From positions 1-64,000 of the forward strand of contig JANLFP010000010.1 of NCBI GenBank assembly GCA_024655905.1: a stretch of 64,000 nt of DNA. The letters are read 5' to 3'. The notes beneath the pieces were generated by a model, which was given only the letters and a program-made list of their open reading frames with translations, was not told the DNA's origin and made no database searches. Source of the stretch: Tepidanaerobacteraceae bacterium (lineage in GTDB: Bacteria; Bacillota; Thermosediminibacteria; Thermosediminibacterales; Tepidanaerobacteraceae). Positions 2,883-63,428 of this stretch are shown here, one piece after another (the stretch's first letter is position 1; each line of letters starts with the position of its first letter). The translations under genes were made by a program, and so were the position numbers.

Positions 2883-3700
2883 AATTTTTCTCTCCTTTCT
2901 AAAAGCCTCATGTTGATGTCCTGTATTACATATTCCAACTCTCCTATGGTATCGATGACGTAATGGGCTCCCGCCTGCCTGAAGTGTTTCCGGGCATTCA
3001 GTACCTTTTGGTCCAGCAGTTTCAGGTCCATATGGCTTACTTCTTCCCGGCTAAGCCCCATCTCACTACCACCCAGCACTACACCCACACTCCACATGCC
3101 GGCATTGAGGCCTTCTTTTATGTCGCTAACGGTATCTCCGACTTTTACCATGGCTTCTTGGGGATAAATCCCCAGCAGCATGGCATTCTTATAGCACATC
3201 CATGGAAAAGGTCTCCCTGCAGGTACATCCGTAGGAGTAACTACCACATCCGGTATCACGCCATACTCTTCGGCTTTCTTTGCAACTATTTTCATCATAT
3301 CAGCCGTATATCCTGTGGTGGAACCTATCTTAATCCCATTTTTTCTTAAACTATAAAAGAGCTCTGCAACCCCCGGAATAGGTTTTGAATAATAAGGCAA
3401 TATCTCCAAAAGAATCGGCACAAATTCCCTATAAAGACCATTCACATCTTCTTCATCGGGCTTTTTACCGAACTTTTCCACCCAGGCATCGGAAACCCTT
3501 TTTATATTACACAATGCTTTGATGTGGTCTCGCTTCGTAAGTCCCATGAAAGTGCGGACCTCATCCGCCGTAAGTTGAATGTCTCTTTTTTTAAATAGCT
3601 CAAGAAAGGCTTCTACCGGTGCAAAACAGCCATAATCCACCAGAGTCCCAGCCCAGTCAAAGACTACTGCCTTTATGTTTCCTTTATAATTTGCCAACAT
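2858..3700 (-). CDS. phnX: phosphonoacetaldehyde hydrolase (phosphonatase)
   Basis: A HAD-superfamily enzyme of 280 residues that splits the C-P bond of phosphonoacetaldehyde to acetaldehyde and phosphate. The nucleophile motif FDWAGTLVD has Asp15 and the family-typical Ala17 in place of the usual second Asp. MGLTKRDHI carries the Schiff-base lysine (Lys56) that distinguishes phosphonatase from other HAD proteins. VKVGDTVSDIKEGLNAGMW is the C-terminal acidic motif. Start ATG is 7-8 nt after GGAGG. It joins the two PLP enzymes downstream, both of which would yield its substrate. Confidence 0.95.
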   Translation of the reverse strand: MLANYKGNIKAVVFDWAGTLVDYGCFAPVEAFLELFKKRDIQLTADEVRTFMGLTKRDHIKALCNIKRVSDAWVEKFGKKPDEEDVNGLYREFVPILLEILPYYSKPIPGVAELFYSLRKNGIKIGSTTGYTADMMKIVAKKAEEYGVIPDVVVTPTDVPAGRPFPWMCYKNAMLLGIYPQEAMVKVGDTVSDIKEGLNAGMWSVGVVLGGSEMGLSREEVSHMDLKLLDQKVLNARKHFRQAGAHYVIDTIGELEYVIQDINMRLLERREKLCRSTAMN

Positions 3701-3715
3701 TTTACATCCTCCATA

Positions 3716-4525
3716 TTAACTTAATATATTAAATGTACTCATTTCCTCTGTCAGCTCCAGTTTCAGCAGTTTGCAAACCATGGGTGCTATGGCAAGCTGT
3801 GGCACCTCTTCGCTATAGAATCCCGGCTTAAAAGCAGAGCTTATGGTAAAGAGCGGTACATGACGCTCATCGGGGCTTATACCCTGGTGTAAGCCGTCGT
3901 TGTTCATGCCGTGGTCTGAGGTGATGACAATATGGTAATTATTTTCCATCCACCCGGGTGCCAACCACGCAAACCACCTGTCCAGTTCTATGGCCTGTTT
4001 TCTATACTCTTTGGAATCGGGGCCGAAAAGATGGCCCACATAATCCATGCCCATGGGGTGAATTAACAGAAAATCCGGATCATATCTCCTGCGGAGGATT
4101 TCGCCGTCTATCATCAGATGAGAATCGGGATAGGAATCATCAAAATAAAATTTGCCGTATTGTATGGCACTATTCTCATCCCTTTGCTCACGGTCCTCGA
4201 TAATGTCATAAGGCACATGGTTGTATAGTTCGCTGATAAAAAAGTAGGCCGCCGCTGCAGTTTTCAATCCTTTTTCCTTAGCCAGATGAAAGATACTCTT
4301 TTGTTCAGAAAGCCGTATAATATCATTTGACGTAATGCCACTCACATGAGGGGCGGTACCGGTCAAAAGGACTTCATACAGAGGCCTGGATACGGTAGGC
4401 AATTCCGTTTTTACTAAAAACCTTGCGGCCAAGTTTTTCTCCACAAGGTGATTGAGATAACCCATCTGCATGCATGCCGTGTCATACCGCAATCCATCTA
4501 TCATAACCATAATGACTTTTCCCAT
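3716..4525 (-). CDS. alkaline-phosphatase-superfamily hydrolase of the phosphonate operon
   Basis: A 269-residue protein of the type I phosphodiesterase/nucleotide pyrophosphatase branch. Metal and nucleophile motifs are present: MIDGLRYD (Asp10), ELPTVSRP (Thr44 as likely nucleophile), MGMDYVGHLFG and SDHGMNNDGLH. There is no signal peptide, so it acts in the cytosol. It is far shorter than classical phosphonoacetate hydrolase PhnA, a relative of the same superfamily. Its place between transporter and phnX suggests it trims an imported phosphonate ester or related compound to a PhnX-pathway substrate. That is inference; the substrate is unknown. Confidence 0.75.
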   Translation of the reverse strand: MGKVIMVMIDGLRYDTACMQMGYLNHLVEKNLAARFLVKTELPTVSRPLYEVLLTGTAPHVSGITSNDIIRLSEQKSIFHLAKEKGLKTAAAAYFFISELYNHVPYDIIEDREQRDENSAIQYGKFYFDDSYPDSHLMIDGEILRRRYDPDFLLIHPMGMDYVGHLFGPDSKEYRKQAIELDRWFAWLAPGWMENNYHIVITSDHGMNNDGLHQGISPDERHVPLFTISSAFKPGFYSEEVPQLAIAPMVCKLLKLELTEEMSTFNILS

Positions 4526-4552
4526 TCTGATTCCTCCATTTTATATGGCTCT

Positions 4553-5695
4553 TTATACTGCGGTTTTTATCATTTCCCGGGCTTGAGGCACGCCTTTCAG
4601 CAGGGAAGAACCGCTTTTCGAATCATAGACCAAGCATGCTTCGGGGAATACCTTTATGTCGATTTTCTCGCCGGTCTTAAAAATGCAATTATCTTCTGCA
4701 GGCAAATCTATCAACATGGTGCCGCCTTGAAAAAGGCCCACATGTAATCTTATAATATTTCCCATGAAATTGTTCATTTGCACCTCTCCCCGAAGCACAG
4801 TTATAGCGCGGTCCTCAACCGTATTCCTGGCAAGACCGACGCTTTCCGCCCTGATCATGACCGTTATGGGCATGCCCGGCTGTGCATAATATGCCAGTTC
4901 AGGAAGCAGTAGTGTAAAGCGGCCGAACTGCCCAATGGCCGGGTGGATCGAGAGCAATATGCCGTCAAAACGGGACGCGGCTCCAATAAATTCTGCCGTG
5001 AACAAGCTCGCCGGATTCCTGTAAAGGTTTTGAGGCGTGGCCATTTCCACTATTTCACCGTTCCGCATAACCGCTATACGGTCCGACATAGCCAGAGCCT
5101 CAGCCTGGTCATGGGTTACATATATAGCGGTTATCCCTAGTTCCTGTTGAATTTGCCGGATCTCATTCCTGAGTGCCGTCCTTACCGATGCATCCAGGGC
5201 ACTCAGTGGCTCATCCAGAAGCAGGATTTCCGGTTTTGGTGCCAGAGCCCTGGCCAGAGCCACGCGCTGCTGTTGTCCGCCGCTTAATTCATGTGGATAG
5301 CGCTTTTCAAAGCCCTTCAGGCCTACCTTTTCAAGCCAACATCGTGCTTCATGCCGGGCTTTTTCGTGGTCCATACCCTGTACCTCCAGACCGAAACTGA
5401 TGTTTCCCAGGGCTGTTAGATTTGGGAATAGGGCGTAGTTTTGAAATACCATGCCCACCTTGCGCTTCTGCGGAGGGACGCAGCTAAAATTACAGTCGTC
5501 AAGCCAGACTTCTCCTTCATCAGCACTTTCAAGGCCGGCAATAATCCGAAGGAGGGTGCTTTTGCCACAGCCGCTGGGGCCCAACAAGCTTACAAATTCT
5601 CCTGCGCCTACGGTTATTTCTATGCCTTTTAAAGCCTGAAAAGTTCCAAACCACTTGCTTATGCCTTTAAGCCTTAACTGTTTCACCCATATCAC
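4553..5695 (-). CDS. phnT: 2-aminoethylphosphonate ABC transporter ATPase
   Basis: The energy-coupling subunit of the phosphonate importer, 380 residues. Walker A GPSGCGKST, Q-loop VFQNYALF, signature LSGGQQQR and Walker B ILLLDEPLSALD are all intact. The C-terminal third (about 245-380) is a TOBE-like regulatory domain as in spermidine/iron/AEP type ATPases. The first codon is GTG and the frame overlaps the end of phnV by 29 nt; a second GTG three codons later is an equally possible start. Assignment to AEP rather than iron or polyamine rests on the linked phnW and phnX. Confidence 0.88.
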   Translation of the reverse strand: MIWVKQLRLKGISKWFGTFQALKGIEITVGAGEFVSLLGPSGCGKSTLLRIIAGLESADEGEVWLDDCNFSCVPPQKRKVGMVFQNYALFPNLTALGNISFGLEVQGMDHEKARHEARCWLEKVGLKGFEKRYPHELSGGQQQRVALARALAPKPEILLLDEPLSALDASVRTALRNEIRQIQQELGITAIYVTHDQAEALAMSDRIAVMRNGEIVEMATPQNLYRNPASLFTAEFIGAASRFDGILLSIHPAIGQFGRFTLLLPELAYYAQPGMPITVMIRAESVGLARNTVEDRAITVLRGEVQMNNFMGNIIRLHVGLFQGGTMLIDLPAEDNCIFKTGEKIDIKVFPEACLVYDSKSGSSLLKGVPQAREMIKTAV

Positions 5696-14011: not shown

Positions 14012-15367
14012 ATGAACTTAAATCCCAATATATTCAGGCAGTATGATATAAGAGGCATCGTGGAACGCGATTTGGATGAAGAAATCTCCAACACTCTGGG
14101 CAGGGCTTTTGGGAGCTTTGCCATTAGAAACGGCGATAAAAAAGTTGTGGTTGGCAGCGACAATCGCTCCTCTTCTCCTTCTTTAAAAAAATCCCTCATA
14201 GACGGTCTTTTATCTACCGGCTGCGATGTAATTGATATAGGTACTGTAATTACGCCAATTTTTTATTTCTCCAGGATTTTCTACAATATCAATCCCGGCG
14301 TTATGGTCACCGCCAGCCACAATCCGCCGGAATTCAACGGCTTTAAGGTGGGTTTTGGGCCCGGAACCATATACGGCGAAGAAATACAGCATCTGCGCTG
14401 GATGATGGAAAAGGGCGACTTTGTCACGGGAAACGGAAATTTATCATATTTGAACCCCACCGAAGATTACATAAACATGATATGCGAAAAGATACGGCTT
14501 GATAAAAAACTGCGGGTGGGTGTAGACTGCGGAAACGGCACCGCATCCTTTTTTGCTGAAAAACTTTTAAGGCGTCTTGGCGTCGAAGTATATCCCTTAT
14601 ACTGCGATTCCGATCCATCTTTCCCCAATCATTTCCCAGATCCGGTAAAACCCGAAAATCTCAGGGATTTAAGGGATCTGGTTTTAAAAGAGAACCTTGA
14701 TCTGGGCATCGGCTTCGACGGAGACGGTGACCGCATCGGCGTTGTGGACGACAGCGGGAATATCATATTCGGCGATATGCTGATGATCCTGTTCTGGAGG
14801 GAAATCCTGCCGAAACATCCCGGCACCACAGCCATTATAGAGGTGAAGTGCTCCCAAGCCCTTTTTGAAGAAATTCAAAAGCTGGGCGGAAAGCCCATGT
14901 TTTACAAAACTGGCCATTCTCTCATAAAGGCAAAGATGCGGGAGATCGGTGCGGTGTTCACCGGCGAGATGTCGGGCCACATGTTCTTTGCGGACGAGTA
15001 CTACGGCTATGACGATGCGCTTTATGCCGCCGCGCGGCTGCTCAGAATCCTGTCAAAAACATCACGCAAGCTCTCGGAGCTTTTGTCCGACGTTCCCCGC
15101 TATTACTCGACGCCGGAACTTCGGGTACACTGCCCCGATGAGGAAAAATTCAAGAAGGTCGAAGAAGTGAAGGAGTATTTCAGGGATAAATATCCCATGA
15201 TTGAAGTAGACGGAGCCCGGGTGCTCTTCCCCGAAGGCTGGGGACTTGTGCGAAGCTCCAATACCGGCCCGGAACTCATCGTGCGGTGCGAAGCCAAAAC
15301 TTTTGAAGGGTTGGAGAAAATAAAGGCTGAAATGCAGAATGCATTGAAACCTCTAAAGCTTTTTTAA
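14012..15367 (+). CDS. manB: phosphomannomutase/phosphoglucomutase
   Basis: An alpha-D-phosphohexomutase of 451 residues that interconverts hexose 6- and 1-phosphates for sugar-nucleotide supply. The catalytic phosphoserine loop TASHNPPEFNG has Ser102. The magnesium loop is FDGDGDRIGVVD, the sugar-specificity loop GEMSGHMFF and the C-terminal phosphate site RSSNTGPELIVRCEA. The order and spacing are those of bacterial PMM/PGM (AlgC/ManB type). GGAGGTG precedes ATG. A strong terminator follows at 15427. Its product could feed envelope polymer synthesis at the right end of the window, but they are not linked. Confidence 0.9.
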   Translation: MNLNPNIFRQYDIRGIVERDLDEEISNTLGRAFGSFAIRNGDKKVVVGSDNRSSSPSLKKSLIDGLLSTGCDVIDIGTVITPIFYFSRIFYNINPGVMVTASHNPPEFNGFKVGFGPGTIYGEEIQHLRWMMEKGDFVTGNGNLSYLNPTEDYINMICEKIRLDKKLRVGVDCGNGTASFFAEKLLRRLGVEVYPLYCDSDPSFPNHFPDPVKPENLRDLRDLVLKENLDLGIGFDGDGDRIGVVDDSGNIIFGDMLMILFWREILPKHPGTTAIIEVKCSQALFEEIQKLGGKPMFYKTGHSLIKAKMREIGAVFTGEMSGHMFFADEYYGYDDALYAAARLLRILSKTSRKLSELLSDVPRYYSTPELRVHCPDEEKFKKVEEVKEYFRDKYPMIEVDGARVLFPEGWGLVRSSNTGPELIVRCEAKTFEGLEKIKAEMQNALKPLKLF

Positions 15368-45364: not shown

Positions 45365-48300
45365 TTATATCACTTTCTGTTTCAATCGATTCCTAACTTC
45401 CTCGGGTATCAGGTCCTCCACCCTTCCCGTTGCGAGGCAGATGTTGGAATCGGCTGCACCGTAGTAAACGAGGATTTCATCGTTATCATCCAGCACTTCT
45501 TTGTCCAATGCCGGCACCGCGCCGCAGGTGAAAACCACATTGGGCACCCAGCTTACACCGGCCTTGCCTATTTCACATTCGGTTTCGGGCGAAAGTACAG
45601 GATTCGGGGAACGATATAACAACCTTCCCGGGTCCTTTAAGTCCACCAGAATTACCCCCAGCCTGTAAACCATTTCCCTGTCAACCCCATGGTATATGAG
45701 GAGCCAGCCGTATTTCGTTTTTATCGGCTGCGCGCCTGCGCCTATTTTCAGAGAATCCCACATCATGCCGGACCGGGGACCCATGATTATCTTGTGGCCA
45801 TCTCGGGGCCAGGGAAATACCAGTTCGTCCGAGTAGGAAATCCATATGCTGGGTTCTATACGATGGTATATAACGTATTTGCCTTCAATTTTCTCCGGAA
45901 ACAGAAAGGCATCTTTGTCCCATAAACCGGGAAACGCAAATCCCCTTCTCTTCCACCTGTCAAAGTCCCTGTTCAAAAAGTCTGCCACCGGAATTGACGC
46001 TGCCGCTATTTGAGCCACCACGCCATCATAGGCGGTATAAAGCATAAAAATCTCATCGCCGATTATTACAACCCTGGGATCCTCGCACCCTTTTCTTTCC
46101 TGTTCCCTTTCCGGTATAAACACCGGCTTATCCAGCCTTTCTATAATATTGTAGCCATCCGATATGGCAAGACCTATCCTTGAAATGTTATCCTGCCCAA
46201 AGGCCCTGTACAGCAGATACACTTTATCTTTTATTCGAAAAGCCGCAGTATTTAGCACGTATTTATTTTCCCACCAGTGTCCTTTTATTGGATCAAGAAG
46301 CGGATTTCTGTCGAATCTTTTTAATTCACGGGCTCTAGGCCAATTTTCCAGCTCTTGAATAACAATTTCCTCTCTGGGAGGCTTTACTCCCAGAAGTACT
46401 ATTGTCAGATCACTGCTTTCGCGCCCCAGGCTCACCAGTTGAAACACTTGTTCCAGAATTTCTCCCGGATCATAACCCAATTCTTTATAAATTTCTTCCA
46501 ATAAATCGTGGTTAAACCAGTCCCTTTCGATGTGCAGGGACAGCGGAGTAGGAATGCCTTCACCGCCTTTGAAGCTGTAACTCGCCCAGGTCCATGCCGA
46601 ACACGGGAAAAAAGTACCATCTTCTAGCATCAGCCCGAGGCCGTATCCATCGGCCATAGCAGCTATCCTGGCCGAATCTTCCATTCTGTTTTCATCAGCC
46701 AGTCTTGCCGCCAGCTTTTTCAGTCTGGCTGCAAATTGCCGGTGATGCCAGTTCTCAAAAATATGATGCGCAGAAAAAGTCGCTTTGCCGTAGTGTCCCA
46801 AAATTGAATTGACAAATTTTCTTCCAACTTCCTTTCGTTCCCTCACATAGGCCTTCCAAATATCGGAAAAATGTTCTGCCTCCACTATGCTCTTGGCAAC
46901 TCTCGTGAAATAGCGAAGTTTCGGATAATCGCCGCCCATGCCTTTTCCCAGATTCATAATGGCTATCCGGGCGGTAAGGCGGTTTAGATCCGATATCTCC
47001 CGAAGCTCGTTCAATGCCGGGAACTTATTTCTGCTCACTACCATGGGGGAAAGTTCCACTTCTTCAAAACTGTCGGGCCGCAGATTGTCCTTCAGCCAGT
47101 AGAATATACGGTCAAAATAATCTTTATCCTCGGTAAATTGGGCAAGAGTCAGTATATCCCGGACATCCACATTATCCAGAAGCTGGCGCATGTTTCTGAA
47201 GCCCAATCTAATAATCAGATTTCTCGGTGGAAATTCGTACAAAAGCTTTCTGAGTATTTCCCATTTTACCGCCATGATTTTGTTGTGCGGAAAAATTTCA
47301 AAAAGCCTTTTCACCATTGTCATTGTGCCTTCTTCAGTATAAAGATCGCCCGGGCACAATGCATCTATCGTCTTTTCCACACCTGTCAAGAAAGATTCAT
47401 AGCCTTTTAGCAAATCGTCAGACAAACCGCGGCTGTTGATGCCGATGTTCCGCATATAATCTTCAAATGCCGCTTCATATCTTTTTTGCAGCTTCTTGAA
47501 TATCTCGCCGGTATAAACCTCCCTTTTGTTTGCACCGGTGAGCTTTTTCGGCATGACTATAGGCACACCCGGGATAAATTCCAGATAATCCAGAGGCATG
47601 AGAACCGGCCTTGTTTCCTGAACTTTTTTGCCCCAGTTGTGGATAAATTCTTGCCTGAAATTAAAAAAAGCATCGGCGTATTCTTTATATATATCGCGAA
47701 TCATTGCCGGAAAAATTGCATTGGTCTCTATTCCGTTTTCTTCCAATATCTTTTTGGGTTCGGCCGTTTTTGCCAGAATTCCGGCAATAAGACCTTCATA
47801 GACCGTCATCAGGGACTCCAGAGAATCCTTTTTTCCAGCATCGTCTAAAAAACCGAATCCGATTAAAAATTCATACACAATTTTAGCCCAGGCAGAAGGG
47901 GATATATATACGGTTTTAATGGAATCTTGCGCCGCCTTTTCCAGTATGTCGTTCGATTCAGCGCTCAGCACCCTGCTAAAGAAGTTCTGATAATGATGAT
48001 AACCTTCTTTAAAAGAATCCACAAAATCATTATAATTGCACATTATTTCATCGGGGAACTCCTTGCTTTCTTCCCTAATCGCGTCAAGGGATTCAACAAC
48101 AGGTTTCCGGTCCAGCCATACATCCTCATCCCTTTTTATGCATTCGAATAAAGCGCAGGCTCTTTGTTTGAAAACAATACTTTTTTTGCAGAAATCGGGC
48201 GCAGATAGCTTGGTGCCCAAACTTACTTCGCAAATCTTTTTTTTCCATTTTAAAACAGTAGTAATAAGCCACGGATCAAAGCCATAACCACCCGCCAGTT

Positions 48301-48928
48301 CCTGGAACTGGTCGAACTCCACGCAAATGTCTTCCACCAAGTCGTGGGAAAATGAATAAATACCGCTTAATGGATCGCTTACTTCTACTCTGTATAAAGC
48401 TGCCAGCAGCGGTGCAATCAAAAGCGATCCCGCCGGATCCTCAAAAGGGTGCCGTTGAAAAGAAGCAATCGTCAAGTCGTAATCATTCAATATGGGCTGC
48501 GTCAACTTATCAATCCATTCCGGCTTTATGCCCTGACTGCCACGGCTTTGCAAATCTGCTGCCAGCAGTGTTACGTCAGCTTCAAAGTAACGGGCCAGTT
48601 CGAATATCGCCCTGATGCTCCATCCCCTTCCCTTCATTTTCCGGGGCATCACAAAAGCTGCAACCGGCATGTTTTCAAATTCTTTTTTCAGCATTTCTGG
48701 TATATGCGCACCTCGAGGATCCCCGGCACATATTACAAGCTTCCGACCGGAACTATTCTTCATACTGGCCAGAGATGCCTTCACTACATCGGTCAAAGTC
48801 TGTTCTTCATTATAAAAAGGGATGCCGATAATAACATCTATACCCTCAAAATGCTGCAACTGATTTTTTACTAGATTCAACATGTCGGAAAAGAAATTTT
48901 CCCCATTGATTCCACTTGTTGTGCTCAC
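45365..48928 (-). CDS. GT81-like glycosyltransferase fused to a GH130 module
   Basis: A 1187-residue cytosolic protein with two enzyme-like ends. Residues about 28-260 form a GT-A fold: IDVIIGIPFYNEEQTL, MPRKMKGRGWSIRAIF, LLAADLQSRG and DYDLTIASFQRHP...SDPLSGIYSF. This resembles GT81 glucosyl(phospho)glycerate synthases, but the metal motif reads AAD instead of DAD. Residues about 868-1187 are GH130: EDPRV with Asp950 as general acid, then IKTKYGWLLIYHGVD. GH130 enzymes phosphorolyse or hydrolyse beta-mannosides. The middle (300-860) is mostly helical and unassigned. It is last of a three-gene operon. A sugar polymer or solute synthase with its own remodelling domain is my inference. Confidence 0.7.
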   Translation of the reverse strand: MSTTSGINGENFFSDMLNLVKNQLQHFEGIDVIIGIPFYNEEQTLTDVVKASLASMKNSSGRKLVICAGDPRGAHIPEMLKKEFENMPVAAFVMPRKMKGRGWSIRAIFELARYFEADVTLLAADLQSRGSQGIKPEWIDKLTQPILNDYDLTIASFQRHPFEDPAGSLLIAPLLAALYRVEVSDPLSGIYSFSHDLVEDICVEFDQFQELAGGYGFDPWLITTVLKWKKKICEVSLGTKLSAPDFCKKSIVFKQRACALFECIKRDEDVWLDRKPVVESLDAIREESKEFPDEIMCNYNDFVDSFKEGYHHYQNFFSRVLSAESNDILEKAAQDSIKTVYISPSAWAKIVYEFLIGFGFLDDAGKKDSLESLMTVYEGLIAGILAKTAEPKKILEENGIETNAIFPAMIRDIYKEYADAFFNFRQEFIHNWGKKVQETRPVLMPLDYLEFIPGVPIVMPKKLTGANKREVYTGEIFKKLQKRYEAAFEDYMRNIGINSRGLSDDLLKGYESFLTGVEKTIDALCPGDLYTEEGTMTMVKRLFEIFPHNKIMAVKWEILRKLLYEFPPRNLIIRLGFRNMRQLLDNVDVRDILTLAQFTEDKDYFDRIFYWLKDNLRPDSFEEVELSPMVVSRNKFPALNELREISDLNRLTARIAIMNLGKGMGGDYPKLRYFTRVAKSIVEAEHFSDIWKAYVRERKEVGRKFVNSILGHYGKATFSAHHIFENWHHRQFAARLKKLAARLADENRMEDSARIAAMADGYGLGLMLEDGTFFPCSAWTWASYSFKGGEGIPTPLSLHIERDWFNHDLLEEIYKELGYDPGEILEQVFQLVSLGRESSDLTIVLLGVKPPREEIVIQELENWPRARELKRFDRNPLLDPIKGHWWENKYVLNTAAFRIKDKVYLLYRAFGQDNISRIGLAISDGYNIIERLDKPVFIPEREQERKGCEDPRVVIIGDEIFMLYTAYDGVVAQIAAASIPVADFLNRDFDRWKRRGFAFPGLWDKDAFLFPEKIEGKYVIYHRIEPSIWISYSDELVFPWPRDGHKIIMGPRSGMMWDSLKIGAGAQPIKTKYGWLLIYHGVDREMVYRLGVILVDLKDPGRLLYRSPNPVLSPETECEIGKAGVSWVPNVVFTCGAVPALDKEVLDDNDEILVYYGAADSNICLATGRVEDLIPEEVRNRLKQKVI

Positions 48929-48940
48929 CGGCTCTCCTCC

Positions 48941-49963
48941 TTAAACGGCAGGAATTAATCTTTGACTTTTTTTCTCGATGACATTCTTTATGGCATGATG
49001 GGCCATAAGAAAGGATATAACCGCTTCGGCCCCTTGATTGAGGTTCACACCATCGGGAACCAGCGCGTCGTGGCACCCCTGAGTGTCTTTATTGTAAAGG
49101 GGTATGCCGTTGATGTTTTTCCCCCAGTACCAGTCATAAGCAATCCTCGCTTTATAAGCGTATTCCGATTCCCCGGTTACAGCAAAAGCCTCAAGGCAAG
49201 CTAGCACTACCGAAGCAGCATCCACCGGCTGCTGATCGAAATCGGGTATAAAACTTTGCCTGTGCCACCATCCCCGGTTTCCAACGATGTTTAAATATCC
49301 CTTTTTAAAAAGAGAGTCCGTCAGGAAGTCAAGAGTGTCCTTCGCAACTTTCAGAGCTCTGGCGTTGCCGCTGACCCTGTAAAAACCAAAAAGAGCATGA
49401 GGTATTACCGCGTTGCAATAAGTCAATTTATCTTCAAACCACAACCAGTCGGGGCTTCGATTCATTTGGTACAGCATTATAAGCTTATCCGCCATCTGCT
49501 TCGCATAGGGCAGCACCCATAAATACCTGCCTCTATCGATAAGGTTTTCAATTCCAATCAATGCATATGATATGGCTCTCGGAGAATTGAATTTAAATGC
49601 CCTCGGGAGGGCTTTTCCCAATATTTTTTTTGCCATTTTTTCAGTATCGGATATTCCGCAGTTCAGTGCAAAACTCGCCGCGATGATACCCCTCCCCATG
49701 CTGTCTTCGGAATTTATAACGGGCGAAAATTTCCCATCAAGCTTTAAATTCTGCCATATGCCCCTTGAATCCTGAGCCTCTTCAAGGAAACGGATGTATA
49801 TGTTCATTAGCCTCTCTTTTTCCTTCGATTCCATATCCATGGCCACCAGCAGCGCCCTGGCATTGTCGTCTACGGTATATCCGCTTTCTTTTTTCGGCTT
49901 TGATTTGTCTGCGAACTGTATTATGCCGGTAGAATCGGTCATGTTCAAGAAATGCCTGTACAT
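48941..49963 (-). CDS. alpha/alpha-barrel glycosidase-like protein
   Basis: A 340-residue soluble, all-helical protein. The repeats of aromatic and glycine-rich turns (GYTVDDNARALL, SPRAISYALIGIENL, WWHRQSFIPDFDQQPVDAASVV) fit an (alpha/alpha)6 barrel. Such domains often stand behind GT4 transferases in thermophile genomes. The function is not known to me. Its ATG immediately follows the TAG of the GT4 gene, and the GT-GH130 gene starts 13 nt after it, so all three are translated together. Confidence 0.65.
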   Translation of the reverse strand: MYRHFLNMTDSTGIIQFADKSKPKKESGYTVDDNARALLVAMDMESKEKERLMNIYIRFLEEAQDSRGIWQNLKLDGKFSPVINSEDSMGRGIIAASFALNCGISDTEKMAKKILGKALPRAFKFNSPRAISYALIGIENLIDRGRYLWVLPYAKQMADKLIMLYQMNRSPDWLWFEDKLTYCNAVIPHALFGFYRVSGNARALKVAKDTLDFLTDSLFKKGYLNIVGNRGWWHRQSFIPDFDQQPVDAASVVLACLEAFAVTGESEYAYKARIAYDWYWGKNINGIPLYNKDTQGCHDALVPDGVNLNQGAEAVISFLMAHHAIKNVIEKKSQRLIPAV

Positions 49964-51115
49964 CTAGTACACCTTCCTCTCGGCATTCACTTGAAGAATT
50001 CCCTGCAGAATTCGAACATAACTTTTCGCCACTTCTGGCCATAACATGGTCTTGCCGAGCTTCATAGCCCTCTTTTCGAGCTGCGCTTTCAATTGAGGAT
50101 TTGAAAGGATTCTGTCAATCAAATCTGCCAGCTGTTCCGGATTTGCCTCCGATGCTACGAGGCCTCTGCCTTCCGACAGTATCTCTAGAGAATAATCATA
50201 CGGGGTCGATACTATTGCTCTGCCGCATCCCACGGCATACGAGAGCGTTCCGCTTACAGCCTGATTGCGGTGCGGATAGGGCGTCAGGTATATGTCTGTC
50301 ATATGCAGTATCTCGCCCAATTCCTCCAGGCTTATATATCTGTTGATAAATTTGATATTGTCTTTAACGTTCAGTTTTTCTATTAAATCCAGCAGGGAAT
50401 CGCGATAAGTCTCTCCCATCCGCTTCTTCAGATTGGGATGAGTTTCGCCTGCCACCAGATATATTATGTCTGGATATTTTTCTTTTAATATCGATATGGC
50501 TTTAATGCCCAGCTCTATTCCCTTTCCGGGACCAATAAACCCGAATGTGGTGACAAGCGTCCTTCCCGCTATGTTGTAAGACTTCTTCAGCAGTTCCCGG
50601 GGTTTTTCCCTGAACATCGGCACCCCGTGCGGCACAACATATATCTTCTCCACAGGAATCCGGTACACTCTGTTTAAAAGCTCGGATGATCTGCGCGTCA
50701 TGCAAATGACCGCCAGAGCCTTTTTTCCCAGCTTCGCCAGAATCCCCCTCTGTCGGAATCCCGGATGAGGCAAAACAGTATGGGTATTCAATATAAAAGG
50801 TTTGTTCAGATTGGAGGCAAAATCAAGAACAAAACTTCCGTCCCGCCCTCCGAAAATGCCGTACTCATGTTCTATGAAAACCACATCGACTTCAGCCGAG
50901 TTTAAAAACTCCGCCGCGATATTGTAGTCGTCTTTTTTGTCTTCCCTCAGTTCAAATACTACTTCCGGCGGATAATCATACATGGAATTCTTATCGGTAA
51001 TTGCCAGAATGGAAACGTTTTGCCCCCAGATGGCGAGATTGTTTTTCAAATCTCTCGCAAATGACGCAATGCCGCATTCTCTCGGAGGGTAAGTGGATAA
51101 TATGGCTATATTCAT
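49964..51115 (-). CDS. GT4 glycosyltransferase
   Basis: A GT-B fold transferase of about 383 residues, cytosolic, using a nucleotide sugar. The N-terminal acceptor half starts AILSTYPPRECGIASFARDL. The donor half has FGFIGPGKGIELGIKA and the EX7E-like region LTPYPHRNQAVSGTLSYAVGCGRAIVSTPYDYSLEIL. GAGGGGAA is 9 nt before the ATG at 51115. It is first of a three-gene operon with the barrel protein and the GT-GH130 fusion. The sugar and acceptor are unknown. Confidence 0.85.
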   Translation of the reverse strand: MNIAILSTYPPRECGIASFARDLKNNLAIWGQNVSILAITDKNSMYDYPPEVVFELREDKKDDYNIAAEFLNSAEVDVVFIEHEYGIFGGRDGSFVLDFASNLNKPFILNTHTVLPHPGFRQRGILAKLGKKALAVICMTRRSSELLNRVYRIPVEKIYVVPHGVPMFREKPRELLKKSYNIAGRTLVTTFGFIGPGKGIELGIKAISILKEKYPDIIYLVAGETHPNLKKRMGETYRDSLLDLIEKLNVKDNIKFINRYISLEELGEILHMTDIYLTPYPHRNQAVSGTLSYAVGCGRAIVSTPYDYSLEILSEGRGLVASEANPEQLADLIDRILSNPQLKAQLEKRAMKLGKTMLWPEVAKSYVRILQGILQVNAERKVY

Positions 51116-51312
51116 AAGCATTTCCCCTCTATATTATTTTTTGTTTTGCATGTCCAATGTCATATTAATATTATTTTATATTAAGCCATGTATTATCCAA
51201 ACACGGTACCAGCAATTATCCGTTATCTGATATTTCTTTATTAATGATAATTTTACCATCAATTTTGCTCAAGTTCAAACGTAATAAAAAAGTGCAATCA
51301 AGAGAAAACCGC

Positions 51313-51368: not shown

Positions 51369-51854
51369 TTAAAAAATTTTCCTCATTTGGCTCCTCCTGT
51401 TATATAATTCCCTGACAAAATCCCCAATATCTATTATAAAACATCCCCGCTTTAGCCAGGCCGTTTTTATATCGGGCCTTATGAGCGGAATCTCCAGTAC
51501 GGCGCTTTCAGAGTACAGTTTTAAAGAGAGACGCTGTACCATTTCACCGGGGTCCAGCCAGATATTTGTTTCCAGATGAAGCTTTATGTCATCTTCATCG
51601 TCCACAAATATTATTTCCTGCGGAACCGCACCATGCGCCTCAAAAATGCCCGCAAGATCCCGATAATCATAACACCTTTTTCTTCCTATGGCGGCCAGCC
51701 GTTTGCCTCCCGTGATTGTGCCGGAAAATTCATAAGTGTCTCTTGATTCGCTCCCTTCCAATTTCTTCCCGTTAAAAAGAACCTCCATGGCCAATTCATA
51801 ACCCGGATTTATTGGTACTGCCGTTCGGGTATAAAGTTCAAGCCCGGTTTTCAT
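51369..51854 (-). CDS. hypothetical protein, 161 aa
   Basis: A soluble protein without signal peptide or helices in the membrane. It reads mostly as beta strands (TAVPINPGYELAMEVLFNGK, ETNIWLDPGEMVQRLSLKLY) and ends with a basic helix. I do not recognise a family. A GGGAGGG ribosome site precedes ATG by about 8 nt, and a hairpin follows, so it is probably a real single-gene unit. It lies upstream of, and on the same strand as, the glycosyltransferase operon. Confidence 0.6.
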   Translation of the reverse strand: MKTGLELYTRTAVPINPGYELAMEVLFNGKKLEGSESRDTYEFSGTITGGKRLAAIGRKRCYDYRDLAGIFEAHGAVPQEIIFVDDEDDIKLHLETNIWLDPGEMVQRLSLKLYSESAVLEIPLIRPDIKTAWLKRGCFIIDIGDFVRELYNRRSQMRKIF

Positions 51855-58547: not shown

Positions 58548-59309
58548 TCATAAAGCTTTTTCCCCGAATCGCCCGAATTTATACAGTATAACCATTGCCA
58601 AAAAAAGCGGGAGCACACTCATTCTTTTTATTCTCGACGGCTGAGTGACAAGTCTGTACAACCATTCAAGACCCGCTTTTTGCATGAAAACCGGTGCCCG
58701 CTGGACCCTTCCAGCCAGCACATCCAGGCTGCCGCCAACTCCCATAGCTACGCTGCATTGCAGTCTGGGTCTGTTCTTCAACATGAAAAATTCCTGCTTA
58801 GGGGCACCCATGGCCACCAGAAGTATATCCGTGCCTGATTTGTTTATCTTATCAACTATCCATTCTTCTTCGCTTTCATCAAAATATCCGTGTTGGGTGC
58901 CGGCTATTTTTATGCCCGGAAACTTACTCTTTATGTTGGTCGAGGCTTCGTCCGCCACTTTCGGCTTCCCTCCCAGCAGAAAAACCGACATATTCCTTCG
59001 GGCTGCCATGTCCAGAATCATCTCCATCAAATCATACCCCGCAGTCCTGCCGCAAAGAGGCTCGCCGATTATTCTGGATGCCAGAACAACTCCTATGCCG
59101 TCAGGAAATCGCATATCCGCTCCGTTAACGGCCTTCCGCAATTCTTCGTCGGTTCGTGAAGCCATAATAATCTCCGCGTTTGGAGTCACTATTGTTTTTA
59201 AGCCATGCGATTTTAGAAAGTCTTCAATTCTTTTCAGCGCCCCATCATAGTCCAATCTATCCAGTATTATTCCCATAATATTTATTTTGCCTTCTTCGCA
59301 GGAACTCAT
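58548..59309 (-). CDS. tagA: WecG/TagA/CpsF family glycosyltransferase
   Basis: A GT26 transferase of 253 residues that adds N-acetylmannosamine or a related sugar to an undecaprenyl-linked GlcNAc. The blocks TPNAEIIMASR, RFPDGIGVVLASR, LLGGKPKVADEA, GYFDESEEEWIV and VAMGAPKQEFFM are diagnostic. The C-terminal amphipathic tail anchors it to the membrane. Its ATG overlaps the csaB stop as ATGA, and GGAGGGG precedes it. With csaB and the O-antigen ligase it suggests a secondary cell wall polymer. Confidence 0.9.
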   Translation of the reverse strand: MSSCEEGKINIMGIILDRLDYDGALKRIEDFLKSHGLKTIVTPNAEIIMASRTDEELRKAVNGADMRFPDGIGVVLASRIIGEPLCGRTAGYDLMEMILDMAARRNMSVFLLGGKPKVADEASTNIKSKFPGIKIAGTQHGYFDESEEEWIVDKINKSGTDILLVAMGAPKQEFFMLKNRPRLQCSVAMGVGGSLDVLAGRVQRAPVFMQKAGLEWLYRLVTQPSRIKRMSVLPLFLAMVILYKFGRFGEKAL

Positions 59310-60406
59310 ATATGCCCCTCCAGCAGCTCCATCGCCAAAACGGCATTATAAAAAGCCTTATCTTTGAGTTCTTCCTTAACGTTCAACAGCAAGTTTCGAG
59401 TTTCTTCCTTATGCTTCAGAGCCTCCTCAAAAAGGCTGCAGAGCTTTATGATATCCAACTCTCCCGGTTTTCCGGCGGATGGCTGGTTTACCATGTCCAG
59501 AAAATGTTCGACTTTCGGGTCGTATATCAAACCCAGCAGAGGAACCCCCATCATTGCCCCGAATATCAAAGCATGGAGCCTCATGCCGAAGATGAGGTCC
59601 ATTTTTCCGCTGAGCCACAGAAGTTCCCTTGGGCTCATGGGTTTTTCCAGTATATGCGCCCTATTTTTCATAAGTTTCATTACCTCAAGGGATTCATAAA
59701 AATCTTTGGGAAACTGCATGGGCAGAAAAATAATATCCGCACCGAAGGTTTTTGACACGTAATCACAGGCTCCGGCTATTATTTCTCGGCTCCTGCCGAG
59801 ATTCCACGGCCTCAGGGAAATCCCCACTTTAATGCGGGAGTCGTCCAGAACAATTTTTTGTTGATTCAGGATTGAAAAGCCCTCTTCATCTTTTATCGGC
59901 TCGAGGACAAAAGCCGGGTCGGCCGTAACCACCAGCGGAGGCTTTTTGACCCCAAGGTTTTCCAGTTCCTTTTTTGAGTGCTCGTCCCTCACCGAAATCA
60001 GGTCAACCGTGTTTCCCACCAGTCTTATCATTCGTTTATTTATGTCTCGGTAAACCGGCCCCACGCCATTGGCATAAAACATCACTTTTTTCCCCATTTT
60101 TTTTGCCATGTAAACTATCATTAGATAGTATGGAATGGATCTGGAACTGGTAACATCCTGAAGAAGCCCTCCCCCTCCGCTTATTACCAGATCCGATGCT
60201 ATGATTTCCTTTAGAATGCTCAAGGGGCTGGTCCTTTTTACCGCTGAAATGCCGTGAAGTTTTCTGGTCATTTCGGGATCGGCTGAAAGGGCGGTAATCT
60301 GAATGCTATTATTCAATTTTTTCAATGATTCCGCAATGGCTTCAAGAATAGCCTCATCGCCGGTATTTCCAAACCCGTAATACCCCGAGACCAGCACCTT
60401 ATGCAT
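59306..60406 (-). CDS. csaB: polysaccharide pyruvyl transferase CsaB
   Basis: A protein of 366 residues from the ATG at 60406, preceded by AAGGAGAAAAGG; the frame opens earlier but that part lies inside the upstream gene. VSGYYGFGNTGDEAILEAI is the family start, ISGGGGLLQDVTSSRSIPYYL the donor site, and FGMRLHALIFGAMMGVPLLGL a C-terminal motif. CsaB ketal-links pyruvate to the wall polysaccharide that SLH domains bind, so it predicts an S-layer or SLH-anchored proteins. It overlaps DUF5693 by 8 nt and tagA by 4 nt. Confidence 0.9.
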   Translation of the reverse strand: MHKVLVSGYYGFGNTGDEAILEAIAESLKKLNNSIQITALSADPEMTRKLHGISAVKRTSPLSILKEIIASDLVISGGGGLLQDVTSSRSIPYYLMIVYMAKKMGKKVMFYANGVGPVYRDINKRMIRLVGNTVDLISVRDEHSKKELENLGVKKPPLVVTADPAFVLEPIKDEEGFSILNQQKIVLDDSRIKVGISLRPWNLGRSREIIAGACDYVSKTFGADIIFLPMQFPKDFYESLEVMKLMKNRAHILEKPMSPRELLWLSGKMDLIFGMRLHALIFGAMMGVPLLGLIYDPKVEHFLDMVNQPSAGKPGELDIIKLCSLFEEALKHKEETRNLLLNVKEELKDKAFYNAVLAMELLEGHI

Positions 60407-62327
60407 TGTATCCTTTTCTCCTTTTTTCATAAAGATAGAATCCTCCCAGTGCCGCGGACCCAATAACGCCTCCCAGAGCCATCCCTTCAAGGGACCGGAT
60501 AACGGATACCAAAGCTGCTATGTGAAAATGACTGAAAGTGTTCATCATCGAAACTTCTCCCAGCAATGCCGCCATGTAAAGCCATCCTGCCCATCTTTTG
60601 TAGCCCATGGCGCCCATTCCTCCAGCCATCATCAGCGCGGGGAACCCCAAAAGGAACTCCTTTGTGCGGGGCCTCACCCAGAGCGTGTTTTCCAGCCATA
60701 TCCTGAAATAAAGTTCCCATTTAGGTATGGGAATTGCCGAAAAATTTCCGGTACGGTTGATGAGCACAAACAGCACGACTCCAAATGCTGAAAGTGCTAT
60801 GAGGCTTCCAATCGACAGGATGGGCTTTTTCAAAGGTACGCCGCCGAAATTGTCTTTTAAATAAAGAATTAAAATAATACCAAAGGAAAAAATATACAGT
60901 GCCTTAATACCGCGGAATTTTTCCAGTCCCAAAAGCGCATCTATGCCTCCATATATTCCCCACAGCACTGCAGCTCCCATTAATGTATGGGCCGATGCCC
61001 GGAAAAAGCTGTATGCAGCCGAGCGCCATGCGTGTAAGAAGCCTTCATCATCAGAAGAAATTTCCCTTTTCATTTCCGCATATATACCCAGCACGGGAAA
61101 ACTCACCGCTGCCAGCAGTCCTGCCGCATCTCTGAATAATGCGAAGTTCGCGACTGCCATTGCATTTAACACAATAAAGAATAGTAAAAGCGCTTTTAGA
61201 GCGGCGGATTCCTTCATGCCTGCAATCCTAATGATTTTCCATAAAGCCCATAGGACTCCCAGCGCGGAAAGAAGTGACAACAGTTTGCTTGCGGCAAAGG
61301 GCGTAAAACCGGCGGCCTTATCGGGGAAAACCGCCAGCTTGAATCCATGGGACACGAGCATATCCCTGATTTGCCCTATATGCTCCTTATCGTATGCCAG
61401 CATGTCTTCCTGACCCGATAGAAAAAGGTGCAGGTATAAGAGCCTGTCGTTCCTGTCCCTTGCCGCCAGGAGATATTCATCCATCCACTTGTGCGGCGGG
61501 CGGTTGTATACTCTTATAGCGGAGTAGCCCAGCTTTTCTATGATTCCTTTGAGCTGTTCCGAGTCCAGGAACTCATCGAAGCCCAGCTTTATACCATTTG
61601 ATGCCGCATAATTTTTCAAGATATTTGCACTTTCGGCACCAGATGGAGCTTCATTGCCTTGGGGAATCAATGTGGAAATATTTCTCCCGGCAAGCTGGCT
61701 ATTCAAACTGTTCATTTCAACGGCTGTTTTTTGCTTCAAGTCCTTGACCATTACCGCTGTATTGAGTCCCAGCGCATCGGCCATGTCAAGGAATCTTTCG
61801 TCAAACCCCATCCCGATGGCGGAAAATCCTCCGGTGCCCTTTACTTCCTGCACAACATAGAGGCCGCTTTCATCAGCATAGGATTTTATTTCATATCTCC
61901 TGGCTTTCATGAAGGATATCAGTTTTTTAAATATGTCCGCATCTCTTGTAAATAAATAAAAACTTTTGGGATTGAAGTCCTTTCTCGAAATATATTCCTT
62001 CAAAAATCTCGAATCCACGCCAAGAAACCTACTATGGTCAAGGACCTGCCATCCGTTTAGCACCAATACCCTGCCGCTGGCCTGCAGGTCCTTCACGGTG
62101 GTCTCTTCCACCGCAAGAGTTGTAACACCTGACGCCTTCAACTCACTCAACACTTCTTCCGGGCTTTCATGGACCACTGCCGCCAGCATGGTCACCTCTC
62201 CGGCGGGAACGGAAATCTCCACGTATTTCCCCTTTGCCTCCGCGGAAATCTTTAAAGCCAGCAAATATGCGGATATAATAACAGATGCAATCAGCAAAGC
62301 AGTCAGCAGTCTTTCTACCGTTTTCAT
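60399..62327 (-). CDS. DUF5693 family membrane protein
   Basis: A 642-residue protein. An N-terminal helix (about 9-30) leads to a long extracellular domain (about 30-340) resembling a TIM-barrel-like sugar or peptide fold, followed by eight or more helices (345-640). In Firmicutes this family sits beside csaB, and I name it by that context and by memory. The role is not known; a transport or modification step of the wall polymer is inference. It starts 3 nt after the GT4 gene stop. Confidence 0.75.
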   Translation of the reverse strand: MKTVERLLTALLIASVIISAYLLALKISAEAKGKYVEISVPAGEVTMLAAVVHESPEEVLSELKASGVTTLAVEETTVKDLQASGRVLVLNGWQVLDHSRFLGVDSRFLKEYISRKDFNPKSFYLFTRDADIFKKLISFMKARRYEIKSYADESGLYVVQEVKGTGGFSAIGMGFDERFLDMADALGLNTAVMVKDLKQKTAVEMNSLNSQLAGRNISTLIPQGNEAPSGAESANILKNYAASNGIKLGFDEFLDSEQLKGIIEKLGYSAIRVYNRPPHKWMDEYLLAARDRNDRLLYLHLFLSGQEDMLAYDKEHIGQIRDMLVSHGFKLAVFPDKAAGFTPFAASKLLSLLSALGVLWALWKIIRIAGMKESAALKALLLFFIVLNAMAVANFALFRDAAGLLAAVSFPVLGIYAEMKREISSDDEGFLHAWRSAAYSFFRASAHTLMGAAVLWGIYGGIDALLGLEKFRGIKALYIFSFGIILILYLKDNFGGVPLKKPILSIGSLIALSAFGVVLFVLINRTGNFSAIPIPKWELYFRIWLENTLWVRPRTKEFLLGFPALMMAGGMGAMGYKRWAGWLYMAALLGEVSMMNTFSHFHIAALVSVIRSLEGMALGGVIGSAALGGFYLYEKRRKGYNA

Positions 62328-62330
62328 CCC

Positions 62331-63428
62331 TTATTCTCCTGTCTTCCGGAGTATTGTATCATATATCTCCATCGTTTTTTCAGCCATAGTCCGGGCGGAA
62401 AACTTTTCAAAGACGGTGGCTCTGGCAGCCTGACCGAGCGAAAAAGCGGCTTGCTTAGATGACAATATGTTTATTATGGCTTCCGCCAGAAATTTTTCAT
62501 CTTTGGGCGGCACGAGAAGCCCGTTCACACCGTTTTTTACCACTTCAGGAATTCCCCCGGCTTCAGTGGCAACCACCGGTTTTCCCAGAGCCATGGCTTC
62601 CAGAAGCGCAAGGCCCATGCCTTCGCTGACAGAGGGAAGCACAAAGACATCAAAATCAGCAACCAGGCTTTCCACATTCTCATGATAGCCCAAAAAATCC
62701 ACATTGCTCATTATTCCCATTTCATCTGCCAGATTTTTTAACTTATCCCTCAGCGGTCCATCCCCCACAATGACCATTCGGGCTTTCGGAAAACTTTTCA
62801 GCACCCTCATCATGGCCTTTATGGCGTATTCATACCCTTTTTCAGGCACCAGCCTGGCTACTGTGCCGATTATTGGACCATCGGCAATGCCGAATTCTTT
62901 TTTCAAACGGGGTTCAACCCCGCCGAATTTCTCCACATCTATGCCATTGTATACTATTTTTATCATGTCAGCGGGAACGCCGTTTTCTATAAGACTTATC
63001 TTTACCGCTCTCGAAATGGCTATAATGCAGTCCGTAAAAACGATTGAAACTATTTTTGCAGCCATCCGGTGAAAAAAATCCTTTTTTCCGGCGCCAAGGC
63101 CGTGGCGGGTGAGCACCACCCTGCGCCCTGACAGCCTGCCGGCTATACGCCCTGCAAAACTGGCGTGAGTGTGCACAACATCGATTTTTTCCGAAAGAAT
63201 TATATCTCTGATTTGCTTAATGTGCTGCAATTTCATCGATTTTTCTCCGCCGGAAATTGTAAAAACCTTTATGCCCATATTTCGCAGCAGTCTTTCCAGC
63301 TCTCCGCCCGACGGGCAGGCTGCCAATAATTCATAGCGCCCGAAGTTCCAGGCTGAAACAAGATTGATGAAATATCTCCCAGCACCGCCTATATTCGTAT
63401 CGGTTAGGACATGGAGAACTCTTTTCAT
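62331..63428 (-). CDS. GT4 glycosyltransferase
   Basis: A GT-B transferase of 365 residues. The N-terminal LTDTNIGGAGRYFINL, then HTHASFAGRIAGRLSGRRVVLTRHG, and the donor half VARLVPEKGYEYAIKA...VLPSVSEGMGLALLEAMALGKPVVATEAGGIPEVV (EX7E motif) mark GT4. It probably adds a sugar to a lipid-linked envelope polymer. The start overlaps the ligase-like gene's end by 4 nt (ATGA). Confidence 0.9.
   Translation of the reverse strand: MKRVLHVLTDTNIGGAGRYFINLVSAWNFGRYELLAACPSGGELERLLRNMGIKVFTISGGEKSMKLQHIKQIRDIILSEKIDVVHTHASFAGRIAGRLSGRRVVLTRHGLGAGKKDFFHRMAAKIVSIVFTDCIIAISRAVKISLIENGVPADMIKIVYNGIDVEKFGGVEPRLKKEFGIADGPIIGTVARLVPEKGYEYAIKAMMRVLKSFPKARMVIVGDGPLRDKLKNLADEMGIMSNVDFLGYHENVESLVADFDVFVLPSVSEGMGLALLEAMALGKPVVATEAGGIPEVVKNGVNGLLVPPKDEKFLAEAIINILSSKQAAFSLGQAARATVFEKFSARTMAEKTMEIYDTILRKTGE

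What the first reader, a model, noticed from the sequence alone, without database searches (positions are those of the whole stretch)
45365..48928. GT81-like transferase fused to a GH130 mannoside enzyme
One 1187-aa chain has a synthase-like end and a phosphorylase/hydrolase-like end, with about 560 unassigned helical residues between. The GT metal motif reads AAD instead of DAD, and GH130 Asp950 is kept. Building and phosphorolysing a glycan in one polypeptide suggests an intracellular reserve or compatible-solute glycan, perhaps beta-mannan-like, as GH130-type enzymes do elsewhere.
Basis: partly seen in the sequence, partly recalled or inferred. Interest (0 to 1): 0.65.

Follow-up and report, generated by a model that had tools for sequence, protein, structure and literature searches.

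The report
GH130 phosphorylase fused to transferase-like modules
A long bacterial protein carries an intact enzyme for cutting mannose chains with phosphate, joined to a sugar-transferase-like part whose metal-binding site is damaged and to a large well-conserved domain that matched no known structure; it sits beside other mannose genes and probably recycles a mannose chain made inside the cell.

Summary
The 1187-aa chain is real and keeps its three-part layout in about 50 homologues from related clostridia. The C-terminal part is GH130: every residue I checked that it shares with the characterised Thermoanaerobacter beta-1,2-mannoside phosphorylases is invariant (51/51), so phosphorolysis of a beta-mannoside (probably beta-1,2) is likely. 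The first 400 residues form one GT78/GT81-like module. Its DxD and metal histidine are intact in 0 of 50 fused proteins but in 5 of 5 unfused relatives, and GT78/GT81 enzymes make alpha, not beta, bonds. So 'builds and phosphorolyses in one chain' is unlikely in its simple form. The middle ~460 residues are a separate, confidently modelled domain with no match in Pfam, PDB sequences, PDB folds or viral folds. The gene is in an operon with a GT4 and a barrel-like protein; elsewhere the same set sits with phosphomannomutase and GDP-mannose pyrophosphorylase, and 90 of 92 genomes with the barrel gene also have GH130. Best reading: turnover of a mannose glycan made inside the cell, with a pseudo-transferase and an orphan domain attached to the phosphorylase. 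New variant of a known kind; substrate and middle domain untested.

The parts
45365..48928 (-). Fusion protein, 1187 aa: GT78/GT81-like module + orphan domain + GH130
48194..48850 (-). GT-A domain, residues about 27-245
   Evidence: weak PF00535; Foldseek to mannosylglycerate synthase and GpgS; unfused relatives
48554..48562 (-). Degraded DxD motif, residues 123-125 (Ala-Ala-Asp)
47729..48193 (-). Helical C-terminal half of the transferase module, residues about 246-400
   Evidence: unfused relatives align to fusion positions 17-406; mannosylglycerate synthase matched over ~415 alignment columns, TMt 0.75-0.77
46331..47716 (-). Orphan middle domain, residues 405-866
   Evidence: AlphaFold2 pLDDT 89, pTM 0.85; no Pfam, PDB-sequence, PDB-fold or viral-fold match
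45407..46324 (-). GH130 domain, residues 869-1174, beta-1,2-mannoside phosphorylase-like
46079..46081 (-). GH130 catalytic Asp950 (EDPR motif)
   Evidence: alignment to 7fip/9fj8; invariant 51/51
48936..48942 (-). Shine-Dalgarno sequence AAGGAGG of the fusion gene
48941..49963 (-). 340-aa protein, probably an (alpha/alpha) barrel; operon partner
   Evidence: weak GH88/GH127; profile hit to YPO2471 7tem 1.7e-8; conserved neighbour; fold itself not modelled
49964..51121 (-). GT4 glycosyltransferase, first gene of the trio
   Evidence: PF00534 1e-18; conserved neighbour
14012..15367 (+). Phosphomannomutase/phosphoglucomutase; far away here, but its homologue is a neighbour of the fusion in other genomes

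Best explanation
The protein is a cytoplasmic beta-mannoside phosphorylase (GH130, most likely acting on beta-1,2 bonds). It releases alpha-mannose 1-phosphate from a mannose-containing glycan made by the same cell and returns it to the GDP-mannose pool. The GT4 encoded at the head of the operon is the likely active transferase, making an alpha-mannosyl primer or core. The barrel-like partner probably trims or remodels that glycan. The N-terminal GT78/GT81-like module has lost its canonical metal site and most likely acts as a glycan- or nucleotide-sugar-binding (regulatory or scaffolding) pseudo-transferase. The middle domain joins it to the phosphorylase and may hold the substrate chain. Shown by computation: layout, conservation, intact GH130 residues, degraded GT metal site, mannose gene neighbourhood. 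Inferred: beta-1,2 linkage, direction of reaction, endogenous substrate, roles of the N-terminal and middle modules.
For: GH130 residues N893, EDPR 949-952, K1005, H1022-R1023, K1061, H1080 and D1160 are invariant in 51/51 and most match the Thermoanaerobacter beta-1,2-mannoside phosphorylases 7fip/9fj8. NCBIfam scores the beta-1,2-mannobiose phosphorylase model at 255 bits against 87 for the beta-1,2-mannosidase model. GH130 is the most constrained part: mean pairwise identity 70% versus 44% (GT-A) and 47% (middle). DxD plus C-His: 0/50 fused, 5/5 unfused. Of the 20 distant loci taken with 12-20 kb of DNA, most carry GT4 and/or the barrel gene, and about half carry phosphomannomutase and GDP-mannose pyrophosphorylase. 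43 of 48 fusion genomes have the barrel gene, and 90 of 92 barrel genomes have GH130. In one genome without the fusion, a ManC-isomerase-mutase-like fusion, GT4-barrel, GT4 and stand-alone GH130 lie in a row. The own genome has GDP-mannose pyrophosphorylase and no other GH130.
Against: No substrate has been tested. The NCBIfam score is below the curated cut-off (255 vs 450 bits), so substrate or linkage may differ. In 9fj8 the residue aligned with K1061 is Arg, so that position is not strictly shared by both characterised enzymes. D125 is kept in 42/50 and the first DxD position is Glu in 31/50, and the literature has GT-A enzymes that work without C-His or DxD (PMC7185993), so transferase activity is not excluded. 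CsaB and a GT4 about 8-12 kb away leave a cell-wall glycan possible.
Confidence: 0.6

Rival explanations
1. Bifunctional synthase-phosphorylase: the N-terminal module is an active transferase (metal held by Asp125 and water, or metal-independent) that makes the acceptor or chain, and GH130 shortens or recycles it.
For: The GT fold is kept; Arg/Lys101 is kept 50/50, Asp125 42/50, an acid at position 123 in 32/50. GT-A families exist that lost C-His or DxD and stay active (PMC7185993). Synthesis and breakdown genes are often paired.
Against: No fused member has DxD plus C-His, though all 5 unfused relatives do. Only 8 GT-A positions are near-invariant against 108 in GH130. GT78/GT81 are retaining (alpha), GH130 cleaves beta bonds, so they cannot share a linkage by the mechanisms known for these families.
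Confidence: 0.15
2. Bacterial mannogen: GH130 runs mainly in the synthetic direction, or in both, and builds a soluble beta-1,2-mannan reserve from mannose 1-phosphate, as the GH130-fold GT108 enzymes do in Leishmania; GT4 supplies the primer.
For: Thermoanaerobacter GH130 enzymes make beta-1,2-oligomannan from Man1P in vitro and sit in a GDP-mannose cluster with no known source of substrate (PMC4264767); GT108 enzymes share the fold and do both reactions (PMC8950772); GDP-mannose gene neighbourhood.
Against: High cytoplasmic phosphate normally favours phosphorolysis; I know of no such polymer reported from these bacteria; no GT108 comparison was run here; no other beta-mannosyltransferase candidate was sought.
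Confidence: 0.12
3. Catabolism of imported beta-mannosides (yeast, plant or microbial glycans).
For: This is the known role of many GH130 enzymes (PMC4264767, PMC8950772).
Against: Neighbours identified in many genomes are GDP-mannose synthesis and GT4 genes. The transporters checked in the window are annotated for 2-aminoethylphosphonate or oligopeptides. The genome was not searched for mannanases.
Confidence: 0.08
4. Part of cell-wall or secondary-polymer mannose metabolism: GH130 trims or salvages beta-mannose from a wall glycan or its precursor.
For: CsaB pyruvyl transferase and a GT4 lie 8-12 kb away; GT4 and ManC are common in wall-glycan pathways.
Against: The proteins look cytoplasmic; CsaB is not among the neighbours identified at other fusion loci; no flippase or polymerase is in the trio.
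Confidence: 0.05

Closest known systems
GH130 beta-1,2-mannobiose / beta-1,2-oligomannan phosphorylases Teth514_1789 (7fip) and Teth514_1788 (9fj8), Thermoanaerobacter sp. X-514
   Same: Best sequence matches of the C-terminal domain (8.8e-62, 3.3e-57), same catalytic residues, same lysine in the NKDA-like motif; both live in GDP-mannose contexts
   Different: Those are ~310-aa single-domain proteins; here GH130 follows 866 extra residues, and the score is below the curated cut-off of the equivalog model
GT78 mannosylglycerate synthase, Rhodothermus marinus (2bo4, 2y4j)
   Same: Fold over the GT-A domain and the helical C-terminal domain (Foldseek 3.7e-11, TMt 0.75)
   Different: Metal ligands (DxD, His217) not conserved in the fused family; no direct sequence match of the fused module in the PDB search
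GT81 glucosyl-3-phosphoglycerate synthase (GpgS)
   Same: Unfused relatives of the N-terminal module match GpgS at 1.2e-13, with DSD and His aligned
   Different: The fused module lacks that metal site; Foldseek ranks GpgS below GT78
GT108 dual mannosyltransferase-phosphorylases (Leishmania mannogen)
   Same: GH130-like fold; logic of making and breaking beta-1,2-mannan (PMC8950772)
   Different: No GT78-like or orphan domain described there; sequence relation not tested here

Membership tests
GH130 | Pfam PF04041 over the gathering score | tested here: met
   182 bits vs cut-off 26
GH130 | Catalytic Asp and -1 mannose residues (Asn, Asp, Asp) | tested here: met
   N893, D950, D1160 invariant 51/51 and aligned to 7fip/9fj8
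GH130 phosphorylase (not hydrolase) | Basic phosphate-binding residues kept, not replaced by Glu | tested here: met
   H1022, R1023, K1061, H1080 invariant 51/51 and the same as in 7fip; the exact phosphate contacts were not checked on a structure, so this rests on identity with a proven phosphorylase
GH130 beta-1,2 type | Lysine that confers beta-1,2 specificity (Lys199 of BT3780) | tested here: inconclusive
   K1005 is invariant and aligns with Lys of 7fip, 9fj8 and Uhgb_MS, but with Arg of TM1225, listed as a beta-1,4 enzyme; its equivalence to Lys199 is inferred
GH130 | Mannoside phosphorolysis activity | not testable with these tools
   needs an assay
GT78 | GT-A plus helical C-terminal fold | tested here: met
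GT78 / GT81 | DxD motif and C-His metal ligand | tested here: not met
   0/50 fused members keep both; 5/5 unfused do
GT78 (Pfam MGS_GT) | PF21969 match | tested here: not met
   not reached by the window protein; best unfused relative reaches 26.6 bits vs cut-off 27
GT108 | Sequence match to Leishmania MTPs and GDP-Man-dependent beta-1,2-mannosyl transfer | not tested
   no GT108 sequence compared; activity needs an assay

The most novel reading that the evidence does not exclude
The protein is a single-chain manager of a bacterial beta-1,2-mannan reserve ('bacterial mannogen'): the orphan ~460-aa domain is a new functional domain that primes, holds or measures the chain, the pseudo-transferase senses GDP-mannose, and GH130 elongates or shortens the polymer with mannose 1-phosphate.
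Probability: 0.12. Interest if true: 0.85.

Novelty: new variant of a known kind. Interest (0 to 1): 0.55.

Why it matters
The source and role of beta-1,2-mannosides in bacteria with such phosphorylases is an acknowledged gap: the authors of the Thermoanaerobacter enzymes wrote that no potential source of beta-1,2-oligomannan had been identified in that genus (PMC4264767). This conserved operon (GT4 + barrel protein + GH130, with GDP-mannose genes) gives a small, testable gene set for that question. The fusion also offers a likely case of a transferase turned into an accessory module, and a large conserved domain with no structural relative found, physically tied to a phosphorylase.

Tried and rejected
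Frameshift or chance fusion: rejected, since the same layout occurs in about 50 homologues. '560 unassigned residues': rejected, since about 150 of them belong to the transferase module. Middle domain from a known family: Pfam on 49 members, PDB sequences, PDB folds and viral folds all negative. Middle domain on viral contigs: none; on plasmids, the N-terminal/middle query hit only a distant Halorussus transferase. A second copy of the middle domain or another GH130 in the genome: none. GT4-B (the neighbour of stand-alone GH130 in other genomes) as a missing partner: no close homologue in this genome, only weak GT4 matches. Papers describing a GT78/GT81-GH130 fusion: none seen in the library.

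Full report
OBSERVATION. The window holds one ORF of 1187 aa at 45365-48928 on the minus strand, starting with GTG, with AAGGAGG just upstream. GH130 is found at the C-terminus by Pfam (1.6e-53) and by PDB sequence (7fip 6.8e-61, 9fj8 3.5e-56). A weak glycosyltransferase 2 match covers residues 34-163. The metal motif reads Ala-Ala-Asp at 123-125, and Asp950 lies in the EDPR motif.

NOT AN ARTEFACT. The window's contig belongs to a 3.2-Mb genome that is 99.98% complete. Named close relatives are Tepidanaerobacteraceae. Full-length homologues with the same layout are found in 24 loci of relatives and in about 48 of 399 genomes drawn from the phylum, nearly always as one ORF of about 1170-1275 aa. 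Some genomes carry two copies.

THREE MODULES. (1) Residues 1-400. The AlphaFold2 model of residues 1-866 (pLDDT 85) matches mannosylglycerate synthase (GT78) over its GT-A and helical domains (3.7e-11, TM-score 0.75 by target length), followed by GpgS (GT81). The profile of the unfused relatives matches GpgS (1.2e-13) and mannosylglycerate synthase (1.1e-6). (2) Residues 405-866. Modelled with 49 sequences, this is a confident single domain (pLDDT 89, pTM 0.85), yet Foldseek finds nothing in the PDB (best E 0.096, probability at most 0.13 among the best 50) or in viral proteins, and neither Pfam nor PDB sequences match. It keeps 29 near-invariant residues. (3) Residues 869-1174, GH130.

STATE OF THE TWO ACTIVE SITES. 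In GH130, Asn893, EDPR 949-952, Lys1005, His1022-Arg1023, Lys1061, His1080 and Asp1160 are invariant in all 51 homologues that cover them. All are shared with Teth514_1789 (7fip), and all but Lys1061 (Arg there) with Teth514_1788 (9fj8). Known GH130 hydrolases instead lack the basic phosphate-binding residues and carry glutamates (PMC4599007). Mean pairwise identity is 70% for GH130 against 44% for the GT-A domain and 47% for the middle domain. In the transferase module none of 50 fused proteins keeps both Asp of DxD plus the metal His, whereas all five unfused relatives do. In GpgS and mannosylglycerate synthase the second Asp and this His bind or face the metal (PMC2581804). The third position (Asp125) and the G(R/K)G loop are mostly kept, and some GT-A enzymes work without C-His or metal, while others such as COSMC became scaffolds (PMC7185993). 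So loss of activity is likely but not proven.

WHY 'MAKE AND BREAK IN ONE CHAIN' IS UNLIKELY. GT78 and GT81 are retaining families that make alpha-glycosides (PMC2581804, PMC7185993), and GT4 is also a retaining family (established knowledge). GH130 enzymes act on beta-mannosides with inversion (PMC4264767). The transferase module therefore cannot make the bond that GH130 breaks by any mechanism known for its family. If the cell makes the beta-bond, GH130 itself in reverse is the simplest candidate, as in vitro for the Thermoanaerobacter enzymes (PMC4264767) and as the GH130-fold GT108 enzymes do with Leishmania mannogen (PMC8950772).

OPERON AND NEIGHBOURHOOD. GT4 (49964-51121), the 340-aa protein (48941-49963) and the fusion gene are consecutive on one strand with gaps of 0 and 12 bases. 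No signal peptide or membrane helix is evident. A terminator-like hairpin lies before GT4 (51337-51305; a consensus match only). The trio is kept in the order, followed by ftsE/ftsX in several genomes. In distant genomes the same GT4 and barrel genes are near the fusion, often with phosphomannomutase (about 60% identical to the window's 14012-15367 gene), GDP-mannose pyrophosphorylase, or a GT4 fused to a mannose-6-phosphate isomerase domain. Over 399 genomes, 43 of 48 fusion genomes have the barrel gene (against 49 of 351 others), and 90 of 92 barrel genomes have GH130. The Fisher p-values are tiny but not corrected for shared ancestry. In at least 16 genomes, nearly all without the fusion, a stand-alone GH130 lies 0.2-5.4 kb from the barrel gene. 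A similar GT4 / GH130 / GH130 / GT4-barrel row occurs on a plasmid of Ilyobacter polytropus, and GT4-barrel genes lie near GH130 on plasmids of Rhizobium and Sphingobium. So the fusion looks like a clostridial elaboration of a wider GT4-barrel-GH130 set for which I found no description.

MECHANISM. Shown: intact GH130, degraded GT metal site, mannose gene setting. Inferred: GH130 phosphorolyses a beta-mannoside made in the cell and returns Man1P to phosphomannomutase or GDP-mannose pyrophosphorylase; GT4 primes; the barrel protein trims or remodels; the transferase-like module binds glycan or nucleotide sugar; the middle domain couples them. The beta-1,2 assignment rests on the best matches and on Lys1005, whose equivalence to the specificity lysine of BT3780 (PMC4599007) is inferred. 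NCBIfam gives 255 bits to the beta-1,2-mannobiose phosphorylase model but the curated cut-off is 450, so a different acceptor sugar is possible.

LIMITS. One genome-collection scan, two structure predictions, no cellular AlphaFold library, and no search of other phyla beyond plasmids were available. The GH130 domain itself was not modelled, and no domain contacts could be measured. 'No known fold' for the middle domain means none found in the PDB or in viral models. The literature library is open-access only.

Noticed in passing
window 48941-49963: 340-aa barrel-like protein with invariant DDNAR, YCN, DQQP and NQGAE motifs that accompanies GH130 in 90 of 92 genomes, and is fused to GT4 in others (L078, L079, L107); no assigned function.
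   Followed up: partly
L107 1219-4332: A 1037-aa protein that joins GDP-mannose pyrophosphorylase, mannose-6-phosphate isomerase and a phosphomannomutase-like part, next to GT4-barrel, GT4 and GH130.
   Followed up: partly
L076 11342-12709: GT4 glycosyltransferase fused to a mannose-6-phosphate isomerase C-terminal (cupin) domain, near the GH130 fusion; recurs in L084 and L087.
   Followed up: partly
L113 (Ilyobacter polytropus plasmid pILYOP02) 6916-12642: GT4, two GH130 and a GT4-barrel fusion in a row on a conjugative plasmid.
   Followed up: partly
window 51369-51854: 161-aa protein without Pfam match, conserved just upstream of the trio in relatives.
   Followed up: no
window 59306-63428: CsaB polysaccharide pyruvyl transferase, a 642-aa protein without an NCBIfam match, and a GT4: a likely cell-wall polymer locus.
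   Followed up: no
window 1524-5695: Hydroxy-aminoethylphosphonate ammonia-lyase next to a 2-aminoethylphosphonate-type ABC transporter: a phosphonate-use locus.
   Followed up: no
L076 12773-13999, L084 5717-7030, L093 12961-14193: A recurring ~410-aa protein (no Pfam match where checked) beside the GH130 fusion and GT4 genes.
   Followed up: no
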